64,000 bases of DNA, from assembly GCA_000961595.1 (NCBI GenBank), contig LADO01000066.1:1-64000 (forward strand), written 5' to 3'. A program made the translations under genes and the position numbers. Source of the DNA: Peptococcaceae bacterium BRH_c4b (GTDB lineage: Bacteria > Bacillota > Desulfotomaculia > Desulfotomaculales > Desulfocucumaceae). Numbering within the stretch: the stretch's first letter is position 1; every line of letters begins with the position of its first letter. Of the stretch, positions 1-7,970 are shown in pieces. The notes beneath the pieces are model-generated. The model did not search any database and had not been told where the DNA came from. It saw nothing but the letters and a program-made list of their open reading frames with translations.

Positions 1-1673
1 GGAAGTTTTCCCTGATCGTAGCTGAATACGGTGGTTCTATCGCCGGGCAGGGTGAAGGAAAGCATCCGGCCCACCGCGTCATATACATAGGTGGTTTTTT
101 GGTCCAGGGGGTTGGTAATTTCTTTTATGTTGCCGTACTGGTCATATTGAATACTGGTTTTTTTCCCGGCAGGGTCGGTGATACGGGTCATGTTCCCCAT
201 GTTGTCATAACTGTATGAGGTGGTCTGGTTCAGCCCGTTGCGAACGGAGGTTAGGTTGCCGTTGCTGTCATAATTGCACTCGGTTGCAGTCCCGCTGGGA
301 TATATGGCCTTGGTTAACTGGCTGTAGGCGGAACTGTACTCGAAACGGGTTTCGGAACCGTCAAAGGCAGTTATTTTAACCAGGTTGTTTTTGCTGTCGT
401 AACTGTATTCCGTTTTGTTCCCGTCGGGCAGTGTTACGCTGGTGCGGTTGCCGGCGCTGTCCCAGGTGCAGCTGGTAACGTTGTGCAGGGCATCCTCCAT
501 ACGGGTGATGTTTTGCTTATCATCGTATTCGTAGGTTGTGGCATTTCCGTCCGGGTCTTCAACCACGGTTTTCTGCTCACCGGGATATGAGTACGTGCGT
601 TCGGCAATCCCGCCGGACTGTACGGATTGGGTAACTTTCCCCTCGCTGTTGTAGCTGTAGGCAATGGTATTGCCCAGGGCATCGGTTATGCCGGTGAGAC
701 GGTGGCTGCCGTCATAGGTGTAGGTCTGTGTGGCCCCGTCCGGGCCTGTTACCTGCACCAGGTCTTTATTGCCGTCATAGGTGTAGCTGACGGTTCGGCC
801 CACGGGGTCGGTAACGGAAGTCAGTAAACCGTTCTGATATGTAAAGGTCAGTTTCCGGCCGTAGGGGTCCTGTACGTTTTTCAGGTTGCCGCTGCTGTCA
901 TAGGCTAAGGAAAGACGGTTGCCCTTGCGATCCTCAATGGCGGTCAGTTTACCGGCGTCAGCGCTCTGGCTGCGCCATGCGGCCTTGTAACCCTCATAAA
1001 AGTAGGTTACGCCTTCCTCGGTTTTAACGGTATAGTTACTGCCGCTATGGCGGGTAAGGGTTCCGGTGTTGCCCGGGGCGGCAGGGGTATAGTAGCCGTC
1101 ATCCAGATCATAGTATATGAGCGGGTCCCCGTCGCAGGAGTCCACCTGGCCCTCGGGGTCGTTTTTGGTGTAGTTGTAGAGCTGGTTGTTGCCGTTTCCC
1201 CGGTACTCTACAATTTTAAAATCTTCAAACATCTGCAGGTACTGATGGTAGCTGAATGTCCAGTTGTAACCCATGGGGCCTGACTGGTCGCTGCCGGTGT
1301 TGTATACCCTGGTCATGGGCAGGGGCAACTGCCGGCCGGGCACGGTCAGGTCGGTAACTTGCAGGTTCACGGAGCCGCTGGCGGCAGAGACGTGATCCTG
1401 GTTGTCCCCGAGACCGTTCAAGGATTTAACATCCAACGGTACGCTTTGGGGCGCCAGGGAGCCGGCCAGGCCGGCCATATTGTCCGCAGGCGGTCGCATT
1501 TGCCCCCAGCCGCCTGGGTCCAAGGGACCAAAGGGGTCGATAAACCCGGGTGCGGCATAGGTTTGCCGGGATGATTCAATGCCCGCAAAAACCGGGGTCA
1601 CCATGCTGCTGAAAGTAAATATCAGCAGGGTAATAACACTGGCAATTTTACAGGATAATTTCCTACTTCTCAT
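1..1673 (-). CDS. RHS/YD-repeat secreted protein, 5' part (runs off left edge)
   Basis: The minus strand is open from about 1676 to the left edge. The N-terminus is a signal peptide with a hydrophobic core (IASVITLLIFTFSSMV), then a Pro/Gly-rich linker, then a DUF6531-like entry segment (LPLPMTRVYNTGSDQ). From about residue 250 come many YD repeats, for example FTYQNGLLTSVTDPVGR and YDSNGNLTSVRNGLNQ. RHS-family proteins form beta-barrel shells and often carry a C-terminal toxin or adhesive tip; that end is outside the window. Two adjacent ATGs (1676, 1673) follow AGGAGG. The second has the better spacing (5 nt), so 1673 is chosen. Expression is probably set by the upstream c-di-GMP riboswitch and terminator. 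Whether it is polymorphic toxin or adhesin cannot be told from this part. Confidence 0.9.
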   Translation of the reverse strand, partial: MRSRKLSCKIASVITLLIFTFSSMVTPVFAGIESSRQTYAAPGFIDPFGPLDPGGWGQMRPPADNMAGLAGSLAPQSVPLDVKSLNGLGDNQDHVSAASGSVNLQVTDLTVPGRQLPLPMTRVYNTGSDQSGPMGYNWTFSYHQYLQMFEDFKIVEYRGNGNNQLYNYTKNDPEGQVDSCDGDPLIYYDLDDGYYTPAAPGNTGTLTRHSGSNYTVKTEEGVTYFYEGYKAAWRSQSADAGKLTAIEDRKGNRLSLAYDSSGNLKNVQDPYGRKLTFTYQNGLLTSVTDPVGRTVSYTYDGNKDLVQVTGPDGATQTYTYDGSHRLTGITDALGNTIAYSYNSEGKVTQSVQSGGIAERTYSYPGEQKTVVEDPDGNATTYEYDDKQNITRMEDALHNVTSCTWDSAGNRTSVTLPDGNKTEYSYDSKNNLVKITAFDGSETRFEYSSAYSQLTKAIYPSGTATECNYDSNGNLTSVRNGLNQTTSYSYDNMGNMTRITDPAGKKTSIQYDQYGNIKEITNPLDQKTTYVYDAVGRMLSFTLPGDRTTVFSYDQGKL

Positions 1674-1721
1674 CATGACCTCCTTGAAAATGGCGTCGCG
1701 CGAAATTCTAAAGGCCGTCTG

Positions 1722-1766
1722 AAAAACAAATAGACACCTTCCCGTTGCTTAAGCGGGAGGTGTCTA
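1722..1766 (-). terminator. Intrinsic terminator between riboswitch and RHS gene
   Basis: On the minus strand TAGACACCT-CCCG pairs with CGGG-A-AGGTGTCTA (13 pairs, one bulged A, about 8-nt loop). TTTGTTTTT follows immediately. It sits between the c-di-GMP aptamer and the RHS start, which is where the expression platform of a transcriptional riboswitch is expected. Confidence 0.85.
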
Positions 1767-1787
1767 TAAAACGAATGCAAATATTGT

Positions 1788-1882
1788 TTCCCACGGCAAC
1801 CCGGCTGTCATAGCAGGTTTTCCCCCTGCATTAGACCCGCAGTTTTGCGTCCCCGCCTTTCGGTGGGTTTGCCTTTTCGCTG
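1788..1882 (-). promoter_or_regulatory. Cyclic di-GMP-I riboswitch (GEMM-I) aptamer
   Basis: Read on the minus strand, the segment carries the hallmark elements in order: GGCAAACC, a GAAA tetraloop on P2, GGGACGCAAA, GGGTCTAA, a variable P3 stem with a GGAAAACC loop region, ATGACAGCCGGGTTGCC. These match the GEMM-I consensus, including the GNRA tetraloop and the tetraloop receptor (CCTAA/ATG-type) strands. It lies about 20 nt upstream of an intrinsic terminator and about 115 nt upstream of the RHS start. Known GEMM-I switches often govern surface, motility and adhesion genes. The sign of regulation (ON or OFF) is not determined here. Confidence 0.93.
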
Positions 1883-1902
1883 GTATGCGACATTTTTACC
1901 AT

Positions 1903-1931
1903 ATTTTAGACAAATTTACCATCCTTTGCAA
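1903..1931 (-). promoter_or_regulatory. SigA-type promoter for riboswitch/RHS transcript
   Basis: Minus strand TTGCAA (1931-1926), 17-nt spacer, TAAAAT (1908-1903). It would start RNA about 10-15 nt before the c-di-GMP aptamer. Confidence 0.65.
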
Positions 1932-2130: not shown

Positions 2131-3920
2131 TTAAACACCAATCAACTCCAATGCGCTTTCAACATTCCAGCTGAGTTTGCGCAAACCGGAAGCAATACAT
2201 TTTACACCTTTTAAGCGTAGCAAGCTTATGGCAAGATTACGCATAGTTGCAAAAACACGTGGAGCAGAGCCAGTCCGGATCTGAGAACGGACGGTCTTCG
2301 TCGAATGTTACATCACGTACGTACCCAATGAAGAGAACACTCAATGGACCAGTGGCCACGAATCGATTCCAACAAGTATTTCTCATCTGCTTTTTCCTGA
2401 GATAAGCTGGTTACCAATTCCTCAGTATCTTGACGGAGATTATTGCCCTTAAGGTCTGTGGTGGAGCGGGCCACTTTGATAAACTGAGTCGCATAAGGAA
2501 AATTTGTTTGCCCCGTTTTTACGGGTGCAACTTGTATTTCACGTTTTTCAATACGGCCATGCCCTTTATCTAGCGTTTTATATGGAGGGGGAAAAATCAT
2601 CCTCATCGATATTGCGTATGGTTTCGAAGAGGTTCCCTTGATTTTGTTTTACCGGAAAAATATAGTCAGCGCCTTTGTCATCAACGATAAAACGGGCATT
2701 TTCTACCTGAGTTTGCATGGCATCAGCCGTCACAATCTTACCCTTTAAATCCAGCGGCTCAAGCAGTGGCTTGAAAGCTTTGATTTCATTGCTTTTCCGG
2801 TCGACCTGTGCTGGCCGATAACTATTCGGTCATGATGCAGCAGGGCCGAAACAAGGTGTACAGGCTTGGTGCTGGCTGATTTTGAGCCGCGTAAAACCTT
2901 CCCGTCTACAGCGATAATATCGTCAGTACTCTGGAAGGCAAGCCACTCACCTACTGTCAGGTCAACCTCATCAGCATTTACCGACTGGATGGTTCGGCGT
3001 AAAGTGGGTTCACTTGGTGGAACATATTTTCTAAGTGTATCACTATACCGGCAGCCGAGCCGCTTTAGTAACTCTTGAGATAAATCAGCAGCCCATTCGC
3101 CAAGGCCAACAAAGCTTTTAGCCCCGGACAAAAGAGCACAAATGGCCACAGCTAGGATAGATATCTGGGCATGCCGGATGCCACGCGGTTTTCGAGGATC
3201 GCTGATGCTTGCCAAATGCTCTAAAAGGCCTCCTTTGGTGTAAATCGGGACTGAATTTAAATCAATCAATGCCTTTTCCCCTCCCTCATATTCAGAAGGG
3301 AAAAATTGAGCAGATAATATTTGTTGGGCGTCTTTATGAAGCGTTTTTATAAAAATGGTCTTGGTCTCCCCGTGGTAGTAATAGACACCAGATTTGCGCC
3401 CATACCCACTGGTTTTACCAAGTGGAACCCATCCGGACGCACGGTAGCATATACCGCTAAAACGGCTGTGGTCAACAAATGTTTCCACTAGCAGAACCGG
3501 GTGGCCATGCACTGCCAGCCAGTCTGCCGGTAATCGTCTCATATTAAGTGCTAAAACCTTCGATGCCAAGTTCTTTATTTGTATGCCTGGTAGAATCAAA
3601 AAGCGCTGGTTGTTGGCGACAAACTTTAGCCGCTGTGCTTTTTGTTCTTGTGACCAACCAACAAATTTTTCGCGGTGCCTGCTTTTTAAGGCAGCAGAGC
3701 CCCACCCAATAAGAGCGACCCATTGCCCCTCCAATGTGGCAACATATTTAAGGGTCTCGCCGGTAAGGTTCTGAAAACCCAGGTAATGGTGTTCTTGCAT
3801 CAGGTTGTTCCAGGTCTTTTCTTCCTCTGGTGTAATTGGGCGGACTACCATTGAATTGAGGCTGATCTGTATTTTGTTGTCGTTTTTAATATGATTTATA
3901 TTTGTTCTATTTTTGTCCAT
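2131..3920 (-). pseudogene. ISAs1-type transposase with DruA-like (DUF4338) N-terminal domain, frameshifted
   Basis: Frame 1 (3920 to about 2745) opens with a DUF4338/DruA-like domain (residues about 25-215; VETFVDHSRFSG, GWVPLGKTSGYGRK). It then enters the ISAs1 transposase-associated region (HLASISDPRKPRGIRH) and the first DDE Asp (IAVDGKVLRGS). Frame is lost near 2808 and resumes as KSNEIKAFKPLLEPLDLKG and TADAMQTQVEN (second Asp). It shifts again near 2595 at a T5C5 run, then gives PPYKTLDKGHGRIEKREIQ and the Glu motif IRGHWSIECSLHW. Two 4-bp tandem duplications (near 2315 and 2287) break the C-terminus, which ends at TAA 2131. Full family length is retained but no active product is possible. 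It probably truncated the peptidase gene to its right. Confidence 0.85.
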
Positions 3921-4009: not shown

Positions 4010-4600
4010 GTGGGTGTAAACCGTAATCGAACACGAGCTAGTCAACGATTTGCAGCAGTTCATGAGTTAGCGCATCCATACCTGGGTCATCATGGAGATA
4101 TAAGTTTTGTTGAGGAAGAGGAGGACCCGGTTCTCCACACTGAAGCTGATAATTTTGCCACTGAAATGCTTACGCCGAAAGACCGAATAATATCTTTAGC
4201 TTATAAACATAGAGATCCAATACCTCTTTTATATCAGATTATGCGTGTGCACGACGTGAGTCTTGAAATGGCCTGCAGACGAATGATAGAGCTTGAGATA
4301 TACCGTGGAGCATTTGTTTGCTTTAGTGAATTACAACCGTTTTTTGCTTACAATTCAAAGGGTTTTTCACTTGAGGCAGAAATTATCTATGACTTGCCTA
4401 AAATAGAACGTGGTTGTTTGATAGCCAAACATGAAACAATAAAAGGTGTAGCAGTAACTTGCTATATTCAAAGATTTAGGCAAAGTGGTAAATTTTTAGC
4501 AGCATGGGTTGAGGATAGTACAGCCAATCCAGAATCCCTATATGAAAAGCTTTTAGATAAATGGTTCGGCAATAAAAAACCCGGAATTACTCCGGGATAA
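4010..4600 (+). pseudogene. ImmA/IrrE-type metallopeptidase (M78/DUF955), 5'-truncated
   Basis: The readable frame begins DETVGVNRNRTRASQRF, then the zinc motif HELAHPYLGHH (HExxH) and the downstream helix EADNFATEML that supplies the third ligand. This is the typical ImmA/IrrE order. Such peptidases cleave phage or ICE repressors. The N-terminal part upstream of the HExxH domain is missing: an in-frame TAG lies at about 3980, right where the transposase remnant begins. The GTG at 4010 has no convincing Shine-Dalgarno and may simply be the first usable codon. The C-terminal 120 residues have no motif I recognise. The 3' end converges on the STAS/HATPase operon. A short product cannot be excluded. 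Confidence 0.6.
4572..4596 (-). terminator. Intrinsic terminator of the STAS/HATPase operon
   Basis: Minus strand CCCGGA-GTAAT-TCCGGG followed by TTTTTTAT, starting 8 nt after the stop of the STAS-like gene. The hairpin lies inside the 3' end of the convergent peptidase remnant. Confidence 0.75.
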
Positions 4601-4603
4601 ATT

Positions 4604-4900
4604 CTAGCAATTAGCAACACGTTTTTTTGATGCACTTCTTTCTTTTAGCACAAATAATATAATCGATTTGAATTCTTCGGAACAATTATTTAACTTTATT
4701 TTTTTCTTGAAATTATCAACACCGAGTTCCGAAACCAAACCACCAAACACTTCGTCAATAAAGGAATGTGATACCGCTTGGACTCCTCCAAAGTCAATTC
4801 TAATTGTATTATGGATATCAAGCAGCATTCTTAATTCATTAATTATCTTACGACCTAGAAAACGGCCTGTTAAATGCCTACCATATAATGATAATCTCAT
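4604..4900 (-). CDS. STAS-like domain protein (DUF4325 family)
   Basis: 98 residues, one small alpha/beta domain. The segment VQAVSHSFIDEVFGGLV matches the DUF4325 STAS-like signature: a (V/A)SxSFxDE turn followed by a helix, where anti-anti-sigma STAS proteins carry their regulatory Ser/Thr. Start ATG 4900 is preceded by GGGGTGA at good spacing. It lies 21 nt downstream of the HATPase gene on the same strand and ends at its own terminator, so the two form an operon. DUF4325 proteins are often encoded beside HATPases, suggesting a partner-switch pair. The target is unknown; no sigma factor is adjacent. Confidence 0.7.
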   Translation of the reverse strand: MRLSLYGRHLTGRFLGRKIINELRMLLDIHNTIRIDFGGVQAVSHSFIDEVFGGLVSELGVDNFKKKIKLNNCSEEFKSIILFVLKERSASKKRVANC

Positions 4901-4921
4901 TACTATTCACCCCTAACTTTA

Positions 4922-5848
4922 TCAATCAAAAACTTCATCAAAATCATCGTGAACAGCGTCCTCGGGAAACTCGGAATCAAAAATATCTTTTATGTTCACG
5001 GGTACATCTAAGTTAAATACCATATTAACAATAGTACCTTGCCAATATGGATATTTTATTATATCATCTTCAATGTTTGATATTTTATACATAGAAGAAC
5101 CTGAAATAATATTCATTTTACCTTGATTTTGGGTAATAATTCTTTTCGCTACAAAAAGACCTTCTCCAGCATTAGTAAATGGCTTACTAGTAATCTTTTT
5201 TCCAACACATAGCTTAAGTGCTTCGGCATCATTTACAATATAATTATAGTTCGGAGTATTTTTTAGTGATTCATACACACCAATACCGCAATCAGCTATT
5301 GCAATTTCAACCTCTATTGCATGCCTATACGTCTGAGCACAAACTATACCATTAATCGGAGAATTGCTGTGATGAAAAATATTGTCAATTATTTCTCCCA
5401 GTGTATGCGTTATTGCATTAAGCGTTCCGTCACTAATATTAATTTGACTTTTTATTACATCTGAAAGCTGACTTACCACTATATAAGCTGTATTAGCATC
5501 TATAACTTCTTTTAATTCACACAACCCAGAATTTTCTTGCCTATTTATAGTATCTTTAATGATTTTGAATTGACTATAAAAATCCATTCTTTCCATATAT
5601 GAACAAACATTTTTATTAATAGCCTCTTTTAAATAATACTCGGCATAACAATTTCGATTTTTAACATACTTCATTAAAGCAGCGACAACAGCTAAACCAG
5701 AAGGCCTAATAAAGTTAACATCTGAAAAATCAAAAGTTATACTATCACAATAATAATGATTATTATTAAATAAAAAGATCCATTCCTGATTAATATTCCT
5801 TATGGTATCAACATTAACTTCAACAGGCAATTTGTAAATATGATTCAT
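4922..5848 (-). CDS. STAS-like/GHKL ATPase fusion protein
   Basis: About 308 residues. The N-terminal ~120 residues look STAS-like (SITFDFSDVNFIRPSGLAVV). The C-terminal half carries the GHKL ATPase boxes: N-box LGEIIDNIFHHS (near 155), G1 IADCGIGVYESL (near 195), G2 NAGEGLFVAKRI (near 235). There is no histidine-phosphotransfer domain or membrane segment, so it resembles SpoIIAB/RsbW-type kinases or signalling ATPases rather than a sensor kinase. ATG 5848 is chosen because AAAGGTG precedes it at about 8 nt; an upstream in-frame ATG (5869) has no Shine-Dalgarno. Its DNA is AT-rich compared with the housekeeping genes, fitting horizontal acquisition. Confidence 0.7.
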   Translation of the reverse strand: MNHIYKLPVEVNVDTIRNINQEWIFLFNNNHYYCDSITFDFSDVNFIRPSGLAVVAALMKYVKNRNCYAEYYLKEAINKNVCSYMERMDFYSQFKIIKDTINRQENSGLCELKEVIDANTAYIVVSQLSDVIKSQINISDGTLNAITHTLGEIIDNIFHHSNSPINGIVCAQTYRHAIEVEIAIADCGIGVYESLKNTPNYNYIVNDAEALKLCVGKKITSKPFTNAGEGLFVAKRIITQNQGKMNIISGSSMYKISNIEDDIIKYPYWQGTIVNMVFNLDVPVNIKDIFDSEFPEDAVHDDFDEVFD

Positions 5849-6032
5849 AAATGCATCACCTTTAAACAACTCTTTCCGGATAGAAGAGAAAAATAAATTT
5901 AATACTAACCATATTTTAACAGAAACATGTGTTTGCTGTCAACGATAAAAATATATTCAAATGTCGCTTGCTGATTATATAATATTCCACAGCAAAACAT
6001 TTTACAAGTATACAACGAAGGCTACCAATATA

Positions 6033-6068
6033 GGTACCAGCCGCATTTATATCCCTGCAGGCGGTACC
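6033..6068. other. Imperfect palindrome upstream of serine recombinase
   Basis: GGTACC-A-GCC pairs with GGC-GGTACC around an 18-nt loop, about 50 bp before the recombinase start. No T tract follows. It could be an operator or part of a recombination site; this is only a structural observation. Confidence 0.3.
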
Positions 6069-6119
6069 CCACCCCTGAATCCAATGAAAATATACTCTAT
6101 CACCCAAAGAGTTGACTAT

Positions 6120-7904
6120 ATGAATAACATAATTAATTTTCGCACTGATTTTAAAGAAAAATCTCAAGAATTACGCTATGCTGTGGCTCTTGGACGCGTC
6201 TCCGACACTAGACAAAGACAGAAAAACGTTAGTATACCAGCTCAAAAGTCTCGTATTGAAGAATGGGCACAAAATAACAACGTTATCATTTTAAAATGGG
6301 ATAAATTTGACCACTCTGCATTCCGGGATCTAGACGCCGAGACAAGATTTACCGAATTAATAAACCATTCAATAAGAGACCGGCGAGTCTCTTTATTTTT
6401 AGTCGATGAGAAAAGCCGTTTTGCGCGTGATAGATATACACGTGTTGTTTACGAGGAAAAGCTACGCAGAGCTGGTGTAAAACTTATTGGTGTTAATGAA
6501 CCGGACTATGACCGTAAGTCAATTCACGGCGTTTGGATGGAAGGTATCAGTATCAAACGAAGCAATGTCAGTTGAAATTGCCTATCATGTTATGAAGGGC
6601 ATGACCGAAAATGCCGGACAACGTGATCCAGTGTCCGGCTGGTGTTATAAAAATGGCGGCTTCCCGCCTGATGGCTATATAAACACCAGAGTCGTACGCG
6701 GTAAAGACGCACGTGGCAAGGATATCGTAAAGTTAATCTGGGAGATAAATGAGGATAGAGCAAAAATCGTTCGCTTTATTGTCCTTGATTTATGGATGAA
6801 CCGAGGCATGTCCTGGAAGGCATCCCGTGACCACCTGAATTCTGACAATCTTATGTTTGTGACGGTATAAAGGGTCCTATGTATTCAGTTAAAGGTAATG
6901 TTTGGGGTGGGTCATCTATAAGAGAAATCTGTATCCGCGCTCTTGAAGGAGTGTACAGCGGCCTTTATTATTGGAACCGCACCGGCAGGGATCTGCGTGG
7001 AACAGGTACCAAATGGAAAGATACAACCGAGTGGACTGTAATTGAAAATGCACATCCGCCAATTATTTCACTTGAGGAGTGGGAACAATTGAAATCTGTA
7101 CGCGGCCCTGAGATAGAAGCACGTAAAGGCAAAGGAACGGCCAACCCCAAGACAGTTAATAGCCGTTGGCTTTTATCCGGCAAGAATGCCCTGGGAGAAG
7201 ATTTTTTTATTTGCTTAAACGGTACAGAGGAAGCTCCCCACCATCTTGTGAGCGCTCAAATGGGTAAAGATGAGTGGTATTTATGCGGCACCTATCGAAA
7301 CAAAGGTTTAGCCGGTTGCGATAAACCTTTTTATGTGGATAAATCCTTTGAAAACACTGTTTTCAGGGCAATATTAAATAGATTCTCCCCTGATAACATT
7401 AGTCAGTTAGTAAAAGAGGTTAACCAATTACTCCAAGCCGATATAAAAGATATACAAAGTTCAAAAAAACACATACAAAAACTTATTTCCGAAAACGACA
7501 AAAAGGCTCGGGAACTGGTTTCTGCTCTTAGTGAGGCTGGTGCTGGGGCTAAAAAATTCATTTTAGCCCAGTTGGAAGAACTGTCCAAAGAAAAGGATAC
7601 TCTTGAAAACCAATCAATCGACCTCGAAAAAGAAAAGCCCGAACTAAACCTTCTTGATGAAGCTACCATTTTAAATTATATAAAACGTGCCCCTTTACTA
7701 TGGGAAAACGGTACAAATGCTGAAAAGAGAGAATTTCTTAGAAGATTTATATATAATCTTGAGCTCGACCCAAATAAGGGTATTGTGTATATCAACTTTT
7801 TTGCCGACCCCTTACGTAGCAAGCCAATAACAATAAAAACAGTTAATGATCCAAAAAATGGTTCATTAACTGGCATATCTAATGGTGCCGGAGACCGGAC
7901 TTGA
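6120..7904 (+). pseudogene. Large serine recombinase (site-specific integrase), two frameshifts
   Basis: Starts at ATG 6120 (MNNIINFRTD). The catalytic domain shows AVALGRVSDTRQRQ with the nucleophilic Ser, VSIPAQKSRI, and VDEKSRFARDR. Near 6550 the frame shifts (+1 in a GTATCAGTATCA stretch) and resumes as NEAMSVEIAYHVMKGMTENA. Near 6868 it stops and resumes downstream as the recombinase domain (WGGSSIREICIRALEGVYSG). This is followed by a zinc-ribbon-like segment (YLCGTYRNKGLAGC) and a long coiled coil (about 7400-7650). Total length (about 590 codons) suits the family. The last codons (GAGDRT, stop) are read from the 3' end of the convergent tRNA-Leu gene, consistent with integration there. 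It is probably inactive. Confidence 0.85.
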
Positions 7905-7970
7905 ACCGGTACGTTCTATAAGAACGAGGGATTTTAAGTCCCTTGCGTCTGCCTATTCCGCCACTCCGGC
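7883..7970 (-). tRNA. tRNA-Leu (UAA), CCA encoded
   Basis: The minus strand folds as a class II tRNA: acceptor GCCGGAG/CTCCGGC with discriminator A and encoded CCA (7885-7883), anticodon arm AGGGA-CTTAAAA-TCCCT giving anticodon UAA, long variable arm CGTTC...GAACG, T-arm ACCGG-TTCAAGT-CCGGT. The serine recombinase remnant overlaps its last 22 nt on the opposite strand. Confidence 0.97.

What the first reader, a model, noticed from the sequence alone, without database searches (positions are those of the whole stretch)
1..1931. c-di-GMP-I riboswitch with terminator controls an RHS-repeat surface protein
The minus strand shows promoter, GEMM-I aptamer, intrinsic terminator, strong ribosome site and an RHS/YD-repeat gene with a signal peptide. 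GEMM-I switches are established on flagellar, pilus and adhesion genes. An RHS shell protein under c-di-GMP control would tie a possible toxin-delivery or matrix protein to the surface-attachment switch.
Basis: partly seen in the sequence, partly recalled or inferred. Interest (0 to 1): 0.6.

Follow-up and report, generated by a model that had tools for sequence, protein, structure and literature searches.

The report
c-di-GMP riboswitch before RHS gene
A standard RNA sensor for the bacterial messenger c-di-GMP sits in front of a secreted RHS-repeat (toxin-shell type) gene, and the same pairing recurs in many related bacteria, which suggests that the settle-or-swim signal also controls RHS surface proteins, probably by shutting them off.

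Summary
Window 1883-1792 (-) is a c-di-GMP-I (GEMM-I) aptamer (79.9 bits; cut-off 35). It is followed by a 14-bp terminator hairpin with a T tract (1767-1721), AAGGAGGT, and a secreted RHS gene (DUF6531 plus YD repeats) cut by the contig end at base 1.

The pairing is not a one-off. I scanned up to 6 kb upstream of 80 other DUF6531 RHS genes of the phylum. Sixteen carry a GEMM-I, all in the sense direction; about 0.4 are expected by chance. Two are 50% and 56% identical orthologues of the window gene, each with its own GEMM-I about 80 nt from its start. In other families the switch heads an operon for an S-layer-anchored protein plus an RHS protein. One GEMM-led RHS protein ends in a Tox-REase-7 nuclease domain.

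The layout resembles the C. difficile Cd1 OFF switch: the aptamer's 3' strand can pair with the terminator's 5' arm (11 bp). I therefore predict that c-di-GMP switches this gene off, opposite to the 'attachment turns it on' reading. The direction is inferred, not shown. The protein's tip is missing, so toxin function is unproven. I found no earlier report of GEMM-RHS pairing in the library searched.

The parts
1903..1931 (-). candidate sigma-70-type promoter TTGCAA-17-TAAAAT
   Evidence: consensus scan, 9 of 12 matches; weak
1792..1883 (-). c-di-GMP-I (GEMM-I) aptamer; P1 = CCAGCG (1883-1878) with CGUGGG (1795-1790)
   Evidence: RF01051, 79.9 bits, full length; P1 read from the sequence
1789..1800 (-). 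switching strand GUUGC.GUGGGA: part of the closed aptamer/P1, or 5' half of the candidate antiterminator
   Evidence: predicted fold of transcripts ending +48..+52 after the aptamer
1744..1758 (-). 3' half of the candidate antiterminator: UCCCGC (1758-1753) and GCAAC (1748-1744), inside the terminator's 5' arm and loop
1721..1767 (-). intrinsic terminator hairpin (1767-1730) and T tract (1729-1721)
   Evidence: -20.8 kcal/mol hairpin, tail TTGTTTTTC
1678..1685 (-). ribosome binding site AAGGAGGT; start codon ATG 1673 (or 1676)
   Evidence: sequence
1..1676 (-). secreted RHS/YD-repeat gene, 5' part only (558 codons), cut by the contig end: signal peptide, DUF6531, RHS repeats
   Evidence: PF20148 E 1.5e-15, PF05593 E 2.3e-61; orthologues 50-56% identical

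Best explanation
A genuine class-I c-di-GMP riboswitch governs transcription of a secreted RHS-repeat gene by intrinsic termination. When c-di-GMP is high the aptamer closes (P1: CCAGCG with CGUGGG), which leaves the terminator free to form, so transcription stops before the RHS gene. When c-di-GMP is low the aptamer's 3' strand pairs with the terminator's 5' arm (GUUGC.GUGGGA with UCCCGC..GCAAC), and RNA polymerase reads through to make the RHS protein. Shown here: aptamer, terminator, RBS, RHS gene, and recurrence of the arrangement. Inferred: ligand binding, OFF direction, export, and that the missing tip carries a polymorphic-toxin or wall-acting domain.
For: RF01051 79.9 bits. Terminator between aptamer and start. 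RHS gene with DUF6531. GEMM-I upstream of 16 of 80 other DUF6531 genes, all sense, about 0.4 expected. Orthologues at G007:C36 (56%) and G322:C20 (50%) also have a GEMM-I about 80 nt before the start. Terminator-like hairpin in all 17 loci. Nested 11-bp antiterminator predicted in transcripts that end before the terminator's 3' arm. Pairing of aptamer 3' strand with terminator arm exceeds shuffles over the 17 loci (Fisher p 0.004), clearest in G002:C45 (0/100), G005:C23 (3/100), G322/L240 (3/100). Same strand order as Cd1 OFF (PMC9262584); C. difficile class I are OFF switches (PMC6200980; PMC11477304).
Against: For the window alone the antiterminator is only suggestive (13 of 100 shuffles reach it), and several loci show none. 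The antiterminator is less stable than the terminator at equilibrium, so it would have to act kinetically. One C. difficile class-I locus is raised by c-di-GMP. No ligand or termination data. Promoter weak.
Confidence: 0.65

Rival explanations
1. The same riboswitch acts as an ON switch: c-di-GMP binding prevents termination, so the RHS protein is made in the sessile state.
For: ON class-I type switches exist (pilM in PMC9262584; one C. difficile class-I locus raised by c-di-GMP). Several relatives show no clear antiterminator.
Against: In the pilM ON layout the aptamer's 3' strand is itself part of the terminator; here the hairpin starts 25 nt after the aptamer and does not contain that strand. 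The predicted A:T pairing fits OFF.
Confidence: 0.25
2. The aptamer is a decayed or uncoupled leader: the terminator works constitutively and the RHS gene is transcribed from elsewhere or not at all.
For: An IS-like element lies directly upstream, the promoter is weak, the full-length minimum-energy fold mispairs the leader, and the rest of the gene is not seen.
Against: The aptamer scores 79.9 bits with P1 able to form, the RHS frame is open throughout, and orthologues in two other genera keep the arrangement.
Confidence: 0.06
3. The switch senses cGAMP rather than c-di-GMP.
For: Two of the 17 aptamers (G007:C36, an orthologue; G037:C1) have A at the position assigned to G20.
Against: The window aptamer and 14 others keep G there. 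GGDEF domains that could be read in three genomes show the canonical Asp in all but one (Asn); none shows the Ser of the Hypr type.
Confidence: 0.04

Closest known systems
c-di-GMP-I (GEMM-I) riboswitch, transcriptional OFF type: Cd1 before the C. difficile flgB operon
   Same: Same aptamer family (RF01051), terminator downstream, 3' strand able to pair with the terminator's 5' arm (PMC9262584).
   Different: Controls an RHS gene, not flagella; direction not measured.
c-di-GMP-I switches on surface and secreted proteins in Firmicutes (C. difficile CD2797 and ZmpI/PPEP-1; B. thuringiensis cbpA)
   Same: Class-I switch in front of a secreted or surface protein (PMC6200980, PMC11477304, PMC7423583).
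   Different: The target here is an RHS/YD-repeat shell protein, a target class not found in the papers searched.
RHS/YD-repeat polymorphic toxins (WapA and Rhs families; PDB 8qja, 7q97)
   Same: YD-repeat shell by sequence; DUF6531 N-terminal domain.
   Different: Signal peptide; C-terminal core and tip of this gene not available; expression under a riboswitch.

Membership tests
c-di-GMP-I riboswitch (RF01051) | sequence and secondary structure match above the curated score | tested here: met
   79.9 bits against 35, model 1-87 complete
c-di-GMP-I riboswitch (RF01051) | G at the G20 ligand-contact position (c-di-GMP type rather than the A20 variant) | tested here: met
   AAAAGGCAAAC in the window; position assigned from own knowledge of the Vc2 structure
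c-di-GMP-I riboswitch (RF01051) | binds c-di-GMP | not testable with these tools
   needs in-line probing or ITC
Transcriptional OFF switch (Cd1 type) | separate downstream terminator whose 5' arm can pair with the aptamer's 3' strand | tested here: inconclusive
   11-bp nested pairing in the window, 13/100 shuffles reach it; collective p 0.004 over 17 loci
Transcriptional OFF switch (Cd1 type) | c-di-GMP increases termination | not testable with these tools
   needs transcription assay
RHS/YD-repeat protein family | DUF6531 and tandem RHS repeats | tested here: met
   PF20148 and PF05593 above cut-off; TIGR01643
RHS polymorphic toxin | RHS-associated core followed by a variable toxin tip and an immunity gene | not testable with these tools
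   window gene cut by the contig end, no orphan core in the genome; toxin tip seen only in GEMM-led relative G037:C1 (Tox-REase-7), whose downstream ORF matches no Pfam family

The most novel reading that the evidence does not exclude
In this phylum class-I c-di-GMP riboswitches are a standing regulator of RHS polymorphic toxins and S-layer-anchored RHS operons. They repress these proteins in the sessile, c-di-GMP-high state and release them in motile or dispersing cells, so c-di-GMP acts directly on the mRNA of contact weapons rather than through protein effectors.
Probability: 0.35. Interest if true: 0.65.

Novelty: new member of a known kind. Interest (0 to 1): 0.5.

Why it matters
GEMM-I switches are usually described on motility, pilus and adhesion genes. 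Here about one fifth of the DUF6531-RHS genes examined in the phylum stand behind one, always in the right orientation, including one with a recognised nuclease tip. If the OFF direction holds, it links RHS protein production directly to the motile-sessile decision, and a one-tube transcription assay can test it.

Tried and rejected
A named-organism search with the RHS protein in genome contigs found no confirmed relative. The rest of the window's RHS gene was sought with the RHS-associated core model; only three other genes have it, so the tip is absent from the assembly. A simple duplex test of aptamer 3' strand against terminator arm gave mixed p values per locus and was replaced by the truncated-transcript ensemble test. 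A cGAMP reading for the A20 variants was considered; no Hypr-type GGDEF was seen. The IS-like element upstream was tested as a repeat and is single-copy. A shared promoter motif upstream of the aptamers was looked for by eye; nothing general was found. Literature searches for GEMM or c-di-GMP riboswitch with RHS, YD repeat or polymorphic toxin returned nothing relevant; the original GEMM paper was not held.

Full report
CHECK OF THE OBSERVATION. cmscan of the whole window gives one riboswitch: c-di-GMP-I (RF01051), 1883-1792 on the minus strand, 79.9 bits, full length, no truncation. Downstream come a linker, a 14-bp hairpin with one bulged A and a T tract (1767-1721; -20.8 kcal/mol), AAGGAGGT (1685-1678), and an ORF open from 1676 (better from ATG 1673) to the contig edge. 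The window is bases 1-64000 of contig C17, so the gene is cut by the assembly and not by a stop codon. The 558 residues hold a signal peptide, DUF6531 and RHS repeats; the best solved relatives are bacterial Rhs proteins. The promoter is only a weak consensus match.

SETTING IN THE GENOME. The genome (3.6 Mb, 66 contigs) has six GEMM-I aptamers. Only the window's is beside an RHS gene. By my reading of the translations, the others stand near a kinase/LytTR-type operon, WxL-like surface proteins, receiver and cyclic-nucleotide-binding proteins, a sigma-factor-like gene, and an HD-domain/CBS-GGDEF cluster. Three other RHS-type genes (contigs C7, C21, C14) have no GEMM-I on their contigs.

RECURRENCE. 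I listed DUF6531 genes in 113 genomes of the order (43 hits in 22 genomes), fetched up to 6 kb upstream of 40 of them and scanned with Rfam. Eight carried a GEMM-I, all in the sense direction. I repeated this for 40 DUF6531 genes elsewhere in the phylum. Eight more had GEMM-I or its GGC variant, again all sense. The expected sense-strand number is about 0.18 per batch, from 510 GEMM-I in 113 genomes (mean genome size taken as about 2.85 Mb). With the window this is 17 of 81, and 17 of 17 in the sense direction. Some loci are related copies (L234 and L238; L236, L243 and L244 are similar), so the independent number is lower, perhaps 8 to 10. The pairing still spans several families.

KINDS OF GEMM-LED RHS LOCI. 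(a) Direct orthologues of the window gene: G007:C36 (56% identity over 555 residues) and G322:C20 (50% over 558), with the aptamer about 80 nt from the start. (b) An operon of a secreted protein with three SLH domains followed by a FlgD-Ig/DUF6531/RHS protein (SLH shown in G047 and G005; the G034 copy is the same by sequence; G218 has a similar pair). (c) A subtilase-RHS fusion (G007:C22). (d) RHS proteins with other N-terminal extensions. The tip is readable in few: G037:C1 ends in Tox-REase-7, and the broken orthologue G007:C36 has a cell-wall-hydrolase match just under its cut-off after the RHS core.

MECHANISM. In the window the aptamer can close with P1 CCAGCG/CGUGGG. Transcripts that end 48-52 nt after the aptamer, before the terminator's 3' arm exists, fold GUUGC.GUGGGA onto UCCCGC..GCAAC, an 11-bp antiterminator that consumes the P1 3' strand. 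Once the 3' arm is made, the terminator wins. A published comparison describes this strand order as the OFF layout (Cd1: antiterminator from A and T strands, terminator from T and H strands), and notes that the ON switch pilM instead puts the A strand into its terminator (PMC9262584). Class-I switches in C. difficile act as OFF switches, with one exception at transcript level (PMC6200980; PMC11477304). Over the 17 loci the pairing of the aptamer's 3' strand with the terminator arm exceeds dinucleotide shuffles (Fisher p 0.004), and G002:C45 is unmistakable (0 of 100). For the window alone it is suggestive only (13 of 100), and several loci show none. I therefore rate OFF at roughly 0.65, ON at 0.25.

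LIGAND. The window and 14 of the other 16 aptamers have G at the position I assign to G20; G007:C36 and G037:C1 have A, which elsewhere broadens recognition towards cGAMP (own knowledge). GGDEF domains of the three genomes that could be read carry the canonical Asp, one Asn, and no Ser. c-di-GMP remains the expected ligand.

NOVELTY. The RNA is a standard GEMM-I and the gene a standard RHS gene. Their pairing, and its recurrence, was not found in the papers that could be searched. That library lacks many subscription papers, including the original GEMM report, so priority is not established.

LIMITS. No binding or termination data; missing C-terminus; genomes unnamed; loci not phylogenetically corrected; only part of the phylum's RHS genes examined.

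Noticed in passing
window 2131-3920 (-): A broken gene fusing a Druantia DruA domain (PF14236) to an ISAs1-type transposase (DDE_Tnp_1_assoc), directly upstream of the riboswitch promoter; single copy in the genome. ISAs1-type transposases also accompany E. coli Rhs elements as H-repeats (own knowledge).
   Followed up: partly
window 5961-7970: A large serine recombinase split over three frames (5961-6575, 6487-6870, 6879-7904 +), its last ORF overlapping the end of a tRNA gene (7970-7886 -): remnant of an element integrated at a tRNA gene.
   Followed up: partly
window 4604-5869 (-): A STAS-like DUF4325 protein next to an ATPase (HATPase_c-like) protein, a switch-type pair beside an IrrE-like peptidase gene (4010-4600 +).
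   Followed up: no
L147 (G007:C36:115-200) and L140 (G037:C1:2001371-2001465): Two GEMM-led RHS loci, one of them an orthologue of the window gene, have A instead of G at the ligand-contact position, so orthologous RHS genes may sit behind switches of different ligand preference.
   Followed up: partly
L041 (G000:C64:3260-3369): Another GEMM-I of the same genome stands directly before an HD-domain gene and a CBS/GGDEF gene, possibly feedback on c-di-GMP turnover.
   Followed up: no
L136, L137, L139, L221: A conserved GEMM-I-led operon of an SLH-domain propeller-like protein plus FlgD-Ig/RHS protein in several families of the phylum.
   Followed up: partly
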